Of a stretch of 47,863 nt of DNA, positions 27,741 through 33,271 are shown one piece after another. The notes beneath the pieces are model-generated. The model did no database searches and was not told the DNA's origin. It saw nothing but the letters and a program-made list of their open reading frames with translations. The number at the start of each line of letters is the position of its first letter. Positions within the stretch are counted from its first letter, which is position 1. The translations under genes were made by a program, and so were the position numbers. The DNA is from a virus, in IMG/VR virus record IMGVR_UViG_3300031240_000013, positions 1 to 47,863 of that record; one strand, written 5' to 3'.

Positions 27741-27745
27741 ATTTA

Positions 27746-27760
27746 GTCCAGTTAATGGAC
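27746..27760 (-). repeat. GTCC palindrome site 24
   Basis: gtccagttaatggac between two tRNA genes. Confidence 0.85.
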
Positions 27761-27762
27761 AC

Positions 27763-27917: not shown

Positions 27918-27920
27918 AGT

Positions 27921-27998
27921 TTGCAACGATACTCCAGTACCTCTTGAAGATTCGGATGCTTGATGAGGTTGTTACTCGCCCCGAGCGTTTCGTTGCAA
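27921..27998 (+). ncRNA. tRNA-sized closed-stem element without T-arm
   Basis: TTGCAACGA (27921-27929) pairs with TCGTTGCAA (27990-27998). Inside are CCTC/GAGG and CTCG-CCC-CGAG. No TTCGA loop and no CCA. The minus strand also reads open with a protein-like sequence here, so it may instead be coding debris. Confidence 0.4.
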
Positions 27999-28008
27999 TT
28001 AGTTTTAT

Positions 28009-29425: not shown

Positions 29426-29662
29426 ATGAGTTGGTCAATAAACCTAAGCGGTCCGCCCGAAGTCGTAACTAGGGAAATAGCCGATGCTATTCTTTTGCTG
29501 GATCGTGCGCTGGACTATTCACAGAATTCTGACGCACATACTGTAAGCGTGTCCCTCGGTGGATATGTCTCGTGGAACGAAGATCGAGAAGTAACATCGT
29601 CTAACGTTTCCTTTTCGGTTGGGGAGACTTTGCATCCTCCGAACCCACCCTCTGTAAATTAG
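29426..29662 (+). CDS. Small hypothetical protein inside the tRNA array
   Basis: 78 residues, MSWSINLSGPPEVVTREIAD onward, AGGAG site upstream. Helical start, then beta-rich (HTVSVSLGGYVSWNEDREV). Its TAG shares its last base with palindrome site 26. No family recognised; not an endonuclease. Confidence 0.7.
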   Translation: MSWSINLSGPPEVVTREIADAILLLDRALDYSQNSDAHTVSVSLGGYVSWNEDREVTSSNVSFSVGETLHPPNPPSVN

Positions 29663-29676
29663 TCCAGTTAATGGAT
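29662..29676 (-). repeat. GTCC palindrome site 26
   Basis: gtccagttaatggat, fused to the TAG of 29426-29662. Confidence 0.75.
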
Positions 29677-29679
29677 TTT

Positions 29680-29916: not shown

Positions 29917-30513
29917 ATGGGAATGACAAGATCAGAGTCGGGCAAGTTAGGTGCTCTTAAATCTAAGATCACTAACTTGCTTAACAAACAAAAGCGTGTT
30001 GAGGCGTATAACACGGACCCTCGTATCTGCAAGACTTGTGAAAAGCCTTTACCTTACGAGAAACGCAAAAATACATATTGCAACCAATCTTGTGCCGCCA
30101 GAACAAACGTTCCTATAGGAAGAAGAACCGTAAGATACAAAGGGCCTCGTTTGTGCGTGATATGTAGAAAAGAAAGAAACACAGGGCGTAAATACTGCGT
30201 AGATTGTTACAAAGACGTTCAAAAATCAAGACTTGGTACTTGGGAAACTGTTAAAACCAATCATGTTGCTAGACGTTTGTTGCTTGAAGAATTTGGACAT
30301 CGATGTTTTGGGTGTGGACTGGAAAAGTGGCTGGATGTTTTGCTTCCGCTGGAAGTACACCATGAAGATGGAGACGCCGAAAACTATCAAAAGGAAAATG
30401 TTAAACTTTTATGCCCTAATTGCCACGCTTTGACACCAACATTCAGAAATAGAAATCCACAAGCGAGCGAGAAAAGACGTAGAAGAAGAAAGACCAAGGA
30501 TTTTGCACCTTAA
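29917..30513 (+). CDS. HNH homing endonuclease (array insertion 1)
   Basis: 198 residues. Two N-terminal zinc modules (ICKTCEKPLPYEKRKNTYCN; LCVICRKERNTGRKYCVDC), then the HNH: HRCFGCGLEKW, LEVHHEDGDAENYQKENVKL, LCPNCHAL. The first residues MGMTRSESGKLGALKSKI are helical and basic. It has its own promoter, and its last 9 bases, including the TAA, are the first bases of tRNA-Thr(TGT). AT-rich compared with the tRNAs, suggesting separate origin. Confidence 0.88.
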   Translation: MGMTRSESGKLGALKSKITNLLNKQKRVEAYNTDPRICKTCEKPLPYEKRKNTYCNQSCAARTNVPIGRRTVRYKGPRLCVICRKERNTGRKYCVDCYKDVQKSRLGTWETVKTNHVARRLLLEEFGHRCFGCGLEKWLDVLLPLEVHHEDGDAENYQKENVKLLCPNCHALTPTFRNRNPQASEKRRRRRKTKDFAP

Positions 30514-30579: not shown

Positions 30580-30584
30580 ATTTT

Positions 30585-30658
30585 GGGTTAGAAAGCAAAT
30601 GATGAGCTGGCGGACTGTGACCCCGCTGTAGTACGTTTGATTCGTACCTAACCCTCCA
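30585..30658 (+). tRNA. tRNA-His(GTG)
   Basis: Acceptor GGGTTAG/CTAACCC, loop CTGTGAC closed by an A31-C39 mismatch, CCA encoded. Confidence 0.86.
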
Positions 30659-30750
30659 AGCAGGCAGAAATAGTGGTTCGAATCCATATTCGTACCGAGG
30701 GTCACCTCGGAACGTCGTCTAAGGGTAGGACGCTGCCAACTTTTTAAAAT
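30659..30750 (+). tRNA. Candidate circularly permuted tRNA
   Basis: The 3' half precedes the 5' half. First comes GGCAG (30663-30667, 3' anticodon stem) and the T-loop segment TGG-TTCGAAT-CCA. Then GTACCGAG (3' acceptor) and a short loop lead into CTCGGAAC (5' acceptor). A canonical D-arm CGTC-TAAGGGTAG-GACG follows, then CTGCC (30733-30737, 5' anticodon stem), which pairs with GGCAG. It exactly fills the space between tRNA-His and tRNA-Ala. The anticodon cannot be read without knowing the joint; an A-A mismatch interrupts the acceptor stem. Confidence 0.6.
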
Positions 30751-30826
30751 GGGCCTATGGTGAAAGCGGCCATCACAGAACTCCTGCAAAGTTCAGTTCT
30801 CGTTTCGACTACGAGTAGGTCCACCA
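30751..30826 (+). tRNA. tRNA-Ala(TGC), C33
   Basis: Acceptor GGGCCTA/TAGGTCC, anticodon arm GAACT-CCTGCAA-AGTTC with C33, T-arm CTCGT-TTCGACT-ACGAG, CCA encoded. Confidence 0.88.
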
Positions 30827-30999
30827 AATGTTAACCAGCACAGGGCCGAGCACCGAAAGGGCTGTTGGCTAACAACAGGTCCACCAAAGTTTGGGGGCCT
30901 ATTTGACGGGGTCTTGTCAGAGATTCTATCGGATAGGTTGGCTGACACCACGAAACGCACCACGCCAAAACTGTGGTCCGTTAGCCTCAGAGCAATTTA
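30827..30999 (+). other. 173-base gap in the array with unassigned hairpins
   Basis: No canonical tRNA. GTTAACCAGC (~30830) pairs with GTTGGCTAAC; GGCTGAC-ACCAC pairs with GTGGT-CC-GTTAGCC (~30940-30985). AGGTCCACCAAA repeats the 3' end of the preceding tRNA-Ala, suggesting a partial duplication. Possibly eroded tRNA genes. Confidence 0.4.
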
Positions 31000-32423: not shown

Positions 32424-33065
32424 ATGTCAGAGCCAAAATACTGTTTTCGCTGTGGCGATCTGATTACTAGTAAGTACGGCAAAAAGTTTTGTTCCAATAA
32501 ATGCGCGGCCCTCCACGCTAATGAATTCGCGGCGAAAGCTACGAGAAAAGACAAATCTCACCCTTGCGACGAGTGTGGAAAAGTTTTTGAAAAACAAGAC
32601 ACCCAGAGCAAGTTTTGCAGCCGTTCCTGCTCCGCCAAATTTCACAATAGAAAAAGATCACAAAGAGTAAGACACCGTTGTCTGGGTTGTGAGAACACAA
32701 TTCTCGGTCGTCAGTCTTATTGTTCCTCTGCTTGCAGAACCGCGCATAATATTCGCTTGTGGATAGAAGGACAATTTAACGCCACCAAGACATACACTAT
32801 ATCAAAATTTATTCGTGATTATGTTATTGAAAAGGCAGGGTATAAATGCACGAAATGTGGGTACTCGCAACGTCGAGGCGACGGTAGCCACATTCTTCAA
32901 GTACACCATGTGGACGGAGACTGGGAGAATAGCCGTCCGGAAAACCTCGAATGCCTTTGCCCAAACTGCCACGCGCTCACCGATAACTATGGCGCTCAGA
33001 ATATGGGAAAGGGTAGAAAATGGAAAAAGAAGTATAGTCTTTTTGCTGGGCTGGCCGAACGGTAA
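32424..33065 (+). CDS. HNH homing endonuclease (array insertion 2)
   Basis: 213 residues. Three Cys-rich modules (YCFRCGDLITSKYGKKFCSN; HPCDECGKVFEK...FCSRSC; HRCLGC...YCSSAC) precede the HNH (YKCTKCGYSQRR, QVHHVDGDWENSRPENLECL, CPNCHALT). Same architecture as the gene at 29917. Its last six codons and TAA (AGLAER-stop) are formed by the start of tRNA-Gly(TCC), a 21-base overlap. Confidence 0.88.
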   Translation: MSEPKYCFRCGDLITSKYGKKFCSNKCAALHANEFAAKATRKDKSHPCDECGKVFEKQDTQSKFCSRSCSAKFHNRKRSQRVRHRCLGCENTILGRQSYCSSACRTAHNIRLWIEGQFNATKTYTISKFIRDYVIEKAGYKCTKCGYSQRRGDGSHILQVHHVDGDWENSRPENLECLCPNCHALTDNYGAQNMGKGRKWKKKYSLFAGLAER

Positions 33066-33130: not shown

Positions 33131-33271
33131 CACAATTAAGTCCATTAATCGGACACACATTTGCGGCCATAACTGTCCGCGATGCAGACGGCGCAAGCGT
33201 CTAAGAAGGGGCCATTCAGGGGCCTTGTACCACAACCTGACCATCTCCAACTACATCAAAGGATCAACAAA
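33131..33271. other. Intergenic region before the structural genes
   Basis: 141 bases with palindrome site 27, a hairpin AGACG-GCGCAAG-CGTCT (~33185-33201) and two GGGGCC repeats. No gene supported. Confidence 0.5.
33140..33154 (+). repeat. GTCC palindrome site 27
   Basis: Perfect consensus gtccattaatcggac, 9 bases after the last tRNA. Confidence 0.9.

What the first reader, a model, noticed from the sequence alone, without database searches (positions are those of the whole stretch)
30659..30750. Candidate circularly permuted tRNA between tRNA-His and tRNA-Ala
A consensus T-loop segment (TGG-TTCGAAT-CCA) is followed by a 3' acceptor strand GTACCGA, a short loop, and the matching 5' acceptor TCGGAAC. 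Then comes a consensus D-arm (CGTC...GACG). The outermost segments GGCAG and CTGCC pair as an anticodon stem. All four helices of a cloverleaf are present but in 3'-half-first order. RNase processing of the flanking tRNAs would release precisely this unit with both ends in the anticodon loop. Permuted tRNAs are established in some algae and archaea; I know of no described phage example of this layout.
Basis: partly seen in the sequence, partly recalled or inferred. Interest (0 to 1): 0.87.

Follow-up and report, generated by a model that had tools for sequence, protein, structure and literature searches.

The report
Capped permuted tRNA mimic in phage
Between two ordinary tRNA genes this virus encodes a small RNA built like a tRNA cut open at its anticodon and sealed at its amino-acid end; related viruses keep one to three such units at the same spot, so it looks like a conserved tRNA look-alike that probably cannot carry an amino acid and may bind proteins that recognise tRNA.

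Summary
Window 30663-30737 folds into a cloverleaf in 3'-half-first order: T-arm, acceptor hairpin, D-arm, closed by an anticodon-type stem (z = -3.15, 0 of 200 shuffles as good). It is not decayed tRNA halves. Seven other array-bearing relatives in IMG/VR carry 1-3 tandem units upstream of tRNA-Ala, in six of them directly after tRNA-His. All stems differ in sequence yet pair; the closest homologue shows three double compensatory changes in 12 differences. The interpretation "permuted tRNA gene" is not supported. No CCA is encoded, the acceptor is a capped hairpin of 3 to about 10 bp depending on the unit, the closing stem often exceeds 5 bp, U33 is missing, and the window array already has all 20 isotypes. 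The architecture is that of the tRNA-like domain of bacterial Y RNA (YrlA, RF02553). A terminase relative encodes Ro60 with a YrlA-like module directly downstream, and an unrelated phage carries a UUCG-capped unit in its tRNA array about 3 kb from Ro60. The window unit lacks the Ro60-binding stem and scores far below Rfam's cut-off, so it is a variant, not a member. Most likely mechanism: a non-chargeable tRNA-elbow mimic released by processing of its neighbours, acting as ligand or decoy. Function is inferred.

The parts
30585..30658 (+). tRNA-His (GTG), upstream neighbour with encoded CCA
   Evidence: Found by ARAGORN only at relaxed threshold, as 30581-30654; 7-bp acceptor GGGTTAG/CTAACCC and CCA at 30656-30658 read from sequence; tRNA-His is also directly upstream in L029, L114, L179 and L191
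30659..30662 (+). 5' flank AGCA; also follows the CCA of tRNA-His in L029, L114 and L182
30663..30667 (+). closing (anticodon-type) stem, 5' strand GGCAG
   Evidence: double compensatory change against L145
30672..30688 (+). T-arm, loop TTCGAAT at 30677-30683; 4 bp paired in the fold
30691..30714 (+). capped acceptor hairpin, loop GTCA at 30701-30704, A.A mismatch at 30694/30711, no CCA
   Evidence: two double compensatory changes against L145, mismatch kept
30717..30731 (+). D-arm, loop AAGGGTA with GG pair
30733..30737 (+). closing stem, 3' strand CTGCC
30738..30750 (+). spacer AACTTTTTAAAAT before tRNA-Ala, of the same T-rich kind as other spacers of the array
30751..30826 (+). tRNA-Ala (TGC), downstream neighbour with encoded CCA
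   Evidence: ARAGORN

Best explanation
The 75-nt unit is a conserved circularly permuted tRNA-like RNA, not a tRNA gene: a YrlA-type tRNA-mimic module placed in a phage tRNA operon. SHOWN by sequence: T-arm, capped acceptor, D-arm and closing stem; conservation with compensatory change; tandem copies in relatives; no CCA; acceptor of variable length. INFERRED: it is transcribed with the tRNA array, freed when RNase P trims the 5' end of tRNA-Ala and 3' processing trims tRNA-His, folds with the T-loop/D-loop elbow of tRNA, and because its acceptor is sealed and it has no anticodon loop it cannot be charged or decode. It then serves as a stable elbow mimic that binds a tRNA-recognising protein, as reported for YrlA with PNPase, TruB and DusA: either as the effector half of a Ro60-type particle or, where Ro60 is absent, as a decoy or tether for a host tRNA-binding or tRNA-attacking factor. 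Identity as a capped permuted tRNA mimic about 0.85; this kind of mechanism about 0.5; the specific partner unknown.
For: Fold equals the permuted cloverleaf, z -3.15. L145 homologue: 75 nt ungapped, 12 differences, 3 double compensatory pairs, 21 of 22 pairs kept; random substitution gives 3 or more doubles in 159 of 300,000 trials. Units upstream of tRNA-Ala in L029, L114 (3), L145 (2, the second decayed), L178 (3), L179 (3), L182 (2), L191 (2). 15 units: 8 different closing-stem and 13 different T-stem sequences, own strands pair 5.0/5 and 4.0/4 against 3.2 and 2.2 for strands swapped between units (units were picked for structure, so this is partly circular). Model R1 from the window plus L145 finds L233, L191 and L178 units at 37.5, 35.2, 32.9 bits; ordinary tandem tRNAs reach about 31. 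Terminase relative G004 has Ro60 (TROVE plus Ro60 vWA) with a 7-bp UUCG-capped YrlA-like module downstream, RF02553 27.7 bits, E 2.5e-5. L233: stemless UUCG-capped unit between tRNA-Phe and tRNA-His, Ro60 about 3 kb away. YrlA biology: PMC8394870, PMC7790460.
Against: No expression data. The window and most relatives are incomplete contigs; Ro60 is absent from the window and from L179's 104.7-kb record that carries units, so no partner is shown. No Ro60-binding stem. Rfam YrlA does not reach its cut-off for any unit (best 27.8 of 69), and the same model scores 25 bits on an ordinary tRNA/tRNA junction. The folds of the L029 and L145 units alone do not recover the full permuted cloverleaf. Three units (L114 u1, L179 u1, L191 u2) have long acceptor loops, and L179 u1 has a full 7-bp acceptor with A73 and T8, which would also suit a processed permuted tRNA.
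Confidence: 0.66

Rival explanations
1. A true circularly permuted tRNA gene: processing of the flanking tRNAs frees the unit, a phage or host RNA ligase joins its ends in the anticodon loop, and RNase P/tRNase Z open the acceptor loop to give a working tRNA.
For: 3'-half-first order with all arms. L179 u1 has a perfect 7-bp acceptor, A73 and T8. L179's record encodes an RNA ligase. A one-nucleotide intervening sequence is known in a Thermofilum pendens permuted tRNA (PMC3978253).
Against: Acceptors of 3-5 bp under 3-5-nt caps in sister units; A.A mismatch and two extra bases in the window; no CCA although neighbouring tRNAs encode it; 6-8 bp closing stems; no U33 on joining; all 20 isotypes already in the array; ligase also in L180 without units; RtcB absent in 13 records.
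Confidence: 0.1
2. Debris: a tandem duplicate of a tRNA whose outer halves were lost, or the halves of two separately decayed tRNAs.
For: The array contains degenerate tRNAs; L145 u2 is a decayed unit and L178/L179 u3 lack the D-arm.
Against: Compensatory changes in closing and acceptor stems between homologues; 1-3 units kept upstream of tRNA-Ala in 8 of 9 arrays read; T-loop and D-loop kept.
Confidence: 0.06
3. A structural spacer: the hairpins guide folding or RNase processing of the long tRNA precursor and have no function in trans.
For: It always lies between tRNA genes; arrays of this lineage contain other structured spacers.
Against: A plain spacer does not need a tRNA elbow (TTCGANT with AA..GG.A) or a capped acceptor; the same module occurs as free Y RNA beside Ro60.
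Confidence: 0.15
4. A Y RNA proper that works with a Ro60 encoded elsewhere in the phage or by the host.
For: Ro60 in a terminase relative and in two other phages with array modules (L233, L262).
Against: No basal stem and no GGTTACTT motif around the window unit; no room between the flanking tRNAs; no Ro60 in the 104.7-kb L179 record.
Confidence: 0.15

Closest known systems
YrlA bacterial Y RNA, tRNA-like effector module (RF02553)
   Same: T-arm, capped acceptor hairpin, D-arm in permuted order; tRNA elbow; no free CCA end
   Different: No basal Ro60-binding stem; closed by a short anticodon-type stem; sits between tRNA genes; tandem copies; far below the Rfam cut-off
Circularly permuted tRNA genes (Cyanidioschyzon merolae, prasinophytes, Thermofilum pendens)
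   Same: 3' half before 5' half, arms complementary across the halves
   Different: Variable capped acceptor, no U33 loop, no CCA; bacterial hosts are not known to have the archaeal/eukaryotic BHB splicing endonuclease (own knowledge)
Permuted (two-piece) tmRNA (RF04321)
   Same: T-arm and acceptor 3' strand precede acceptor 5' strand
   Different: No reading frame or pseudoknots in the unit; canonical D-arm present; no CCA

Membership tests
YrlA / bacterial Y RNA | tRNA-like domain with T-arm, capped acceptor, D-arm in that order | tested here: met
YrlA / bacterial Y RNA | basal stem of 5' and 3' ends that binds Ro60/Rsr | tested here: not met
   only a 5-bp closing stem; tRNA-His 4 nt upstream, tRNA-Ala 13 nt downstream
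YrlA / bacterial Y RNA | Rfam RF02553 gathering score of 69 bits | tested here: not met
   no match at the window unit; best unit of the family L178 u2 27.8 bits
YrlA / bacterial Y RNA | Ro60 gene nearby | tested here: inconclusive
   none in the 47.9-kb window fragment or in L179's record; present in G004, L233 and L262 records
YrlA / bacterial Y RNA | modified by TruB/DusA, binds PNPase | not testable with these tools
   needs RNA and protein assays
circularly permuted tRNA gene | 3' half precedes 5' half | tested here: met
circularly permuted tRNA gene | joining restores a normal tRNA (7-bp acceptor, 5-bp T-stem, 7-nt anticodon loop with U33) | tested here: not met
   A.A mismatch, two extra bases, no U33; sister acceptors of 3 to about 10 bp. 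ARAGORN only gives joint-dependent calls on rejoined sequences
circularly permuted tRNA gene | BHB motif at the termini, circular intermediate | not tested
   no motif scan was made; the intermediate needs RNA from infected cells
permuted tmRNA | tag-coding region and RF04321 match | tested here: not met
   no tmRNA match at the unit

The most novel reading that the evidence does not exclude
Phage tRNA operons carry a distinct class of stemless, Ro60-independent, tandem capped permuted tRNA mimics that act in trans as uncleavable and unchargeable tRNA decoys, for example against host nucleases or toxins that recognise the tRNA elbow.
Probability: 0.25. Interest if true: 0.82.

Novelty: new variant of a known kind. 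Interest (0 to 1): 0.62.

Why it matters
tRNA arrays in phages are usually read as codon supply or replacement of cleaved tRNAs. A conserved, non-chargeable tRNA look-alike in the middle of such an array suggests that some array genes are ligands rather than adaptors. It also places YrlA-like modules inside tRNA operons, apart from Ro60 and sometimes in tandem, which makes the tRNA-mimic half of Y RNA testable on its own. tRNA finders and Rfam miss these units.

Tried and rejected
Direct blastn of the locus in 50,697 phage records: no match. Terminase tblastn: only a 26%-identical Tunturiibacter phage. Direct scan with the 1376-aa tail protein: nothing. ARAGORN on computationally rejoined halves gives scattered low-threshold calls (Phe, Cys, Lys, Ala, Leu) that depend on the chosen joint, so not evidence for a tRNA. 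MAFFT alignments of all units misplace the arms, so covariation was counted on the ungapped window/L145 pair and by explicit dissection. Permissive scans of tRNA arrays return many chance T-arm/D-arm pairs; model scores under about 31 bits are background. YrlA model matches at tRNA/tRNA junctions (L114 4105-4173) rejected as chance. The G016/L102 candidate proved to lie beside a permuted tmRNA and was dropped. Normal-order reading with CTG-CCA as a 3' end rejected: at most 3 bp of acceptor (by inspection).

Full report
Setting. The window is a 47.9-kb IMG/VR virus record with an SU10-like portal, terminase, a family-A DNA polymerase and RecT and a long tRNA array at about 27.7-33.1 kb. ARAGORN finds 25 genes in the window; relaxed search and reading of the gaps add more, so that all 20 amino acids are covered (Val by reading the gene ARAGORN calls Cys-aca as anticodon TAC). 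By terminase the phage is closest to a group of uncultured phages in IMG/VR; the only isolate with a terminase match is a 26%-identical Tunturiibacter phage.

The unit. Between tRNA-His (30585-30658) and tRNA-Ala (30751-30826) lie 92 bases. Of these, 30663-30737 fold into GGCAG/CTGCC enclosing a T-arm, an acceptor hairpin and a D-arm, the minimum-energy and centroid fold, z = -3.15. The T-loop TTCGAAT and D-loop AAGGGTA are canonical elbow sequences. The acceptor hairpin continues 3 bp past the acceptor's last pair (the first of them at the position of A73) and is closed by GTCA; there is no CCA although the neighbouring tRNAs of the array encode it.

Is it more than chance? A closing stem between the T-arm of one tRNA and the D-arm of the next arises by chance fairly often. 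The proof is comparative. (a) L145 carries an ungapped 75-nt homologue. Its 12 differences include three pairs changed on both sides (2-74 GC to CG, 30-51 GC to UA, 31-50 UA to CG), one GU to AU, one broken T-stem pair and the rest in unpaired positions; sliding the partners by 1-3 columns leaves no double change. Random substitutions give three or more doubles in 159 of 300,000 trials. (b) Using proteins near the array and DNA patterns I found other array-bearing relatives. Units lie upstream of tRNA-Ala, directly after tRNA-His in all but L145, in L029 (1), L114 (3), L178 (3), L179 (3), L182 (2), L191 (2); L145 has 2, after an ORF; L180 has none and an HNH-type ORF instead. In L178 and L182 tRNA-His was read from the sequence or from a weak Rfam match. 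In L178 and L191 some 80 bases separate it from the first unit. (c) Across 15 dissected units there are 8 different closing-stem and 13 different T-stem sequences, essentially all complementary. These units were chosen for their structure, so this count is supporting, not independent.

What it is not. A permuted tRNA gene must yield a standard tRNA after joining and opening of the acceptor (PMC3978253). Here acceptors vary: CCC-TAT-GGG, CCTC-GGGTA-GAGG, CGGTC-TTTG-GACCG, CTCCGCC-CTAA-GGCGGAG, and 9 bp plus a mismatch in the window. Closing stems reach 6-8 bp. Joining the window ends cannot give a 7-nt loop with U33. RtcB is absent from 13 records; an RNA ligase occurs in L179's record (with units) and L180's (without). 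I therefore put the permuted tRNA gene at about 0.1; L179 u1, with a perfect 7-bp acceptor, A73 and T8, is its best support.

What it resembles. The YrlA Y RNA has a tRNA-like domain with D, T and acceptor arms, is modified by DusA and TruB and binds PNPase (PMC8394870); it has been proposed as a competitive inhibitor of a tRNA nuclease (PMC7790460). In terminase relative G004 a Ro60 gene (TROVE and Ro60 vWA domains) is followed at once by such a module: T-arm, 7-bp acceptor capped by UUCG, D-arm, flanked by the stem motif GGTTACTT, which recurs in two more candidate Y RNAs around the gene. Some array modules have a long basal stem (L262, L302), others have none and sit directly between tRNAs (L233, L306, L282, L265; L238 directly after a tRNA). 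L233's record encodes Ro60 about 3 kb from its unit. Similar unannotated stretches appear in isolates such as mycobacteriophages Sparky and Phabba, in line with Y RNAs reported from mycobacteriophages (PMC12282133).

Mechanism. Shown: architecture, conservation, position, absence of CCA, variable capped acceptor. Inferred: co-transcription with the array, release by processing of the neighbours, tRNA-elbow fold, no charging, and binding of a tRNA-recognising protein as effector module or decoy. Ro60 dependence is open: two Ro60 phages carry array modules, but L179's 104.7-kb record, which has three units, shows no Ro60.

Limits. All relatives are metagenomic contigs, many partial; there is no RNA evidence; single-sequence folding of the L029 and L145 units does not give the full permuted cloverleaf; Rfam YrlA stays far below threshold for every unit.

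Noticed in passing
L182 3024-3333; L102 1493-1806: Phage-encoded permuted tmRNA (RF04321, 94.4 and 70.5 bits; ARAGORN tag AVPFELPMAA in L182), in L182 inside the tRNA array.
   Followed up: partly
window 30886-30940; L178 about 640-700: Right after tRNA-Ala a stretch resembles a tmRNA 5' piece (window GGGGGCCTATTTGACGGGG, L178 GGGGGTGTATTTCGACGGG); in the window it is preceded by AGGTCCACCA, possibly a diverged permuted tmRNA. No Rfam match.
   Followed up: no
window 27741-27762, 29660-29679, 33131-33155; L114 1413-1440, 2459-2485: Recurrent spacer motif close to TCCA-NNTAA-TGGAC in the arrays of this phage group, possibly a hairpin with a regulatory or processing role.
   Followed up: no
window 27918-28008, 30827-30999; L029 2513-2594: Other structured, non-tRNA spacers of about 75-170 nt between tRNA genes, not assigned to any family.
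   Followed up: no
L176 9836-11161 (-) and flanks: Phage Ro60 gene with three candidate Y RNAs carrying the motif GGTTACTT, one upstream and two downstream.
   Followed up: partly
L145 2916-2973 (-): Twister-P5 ribozyme (40.0 bits, above the gathering score) in the relative that carries the closest homologue of the unit.
   Followed up: no
window 29917-30513, 32424-33065: Free-standing HNH endonuclease genes inserted in the tRNA array.
   Followed up: partly
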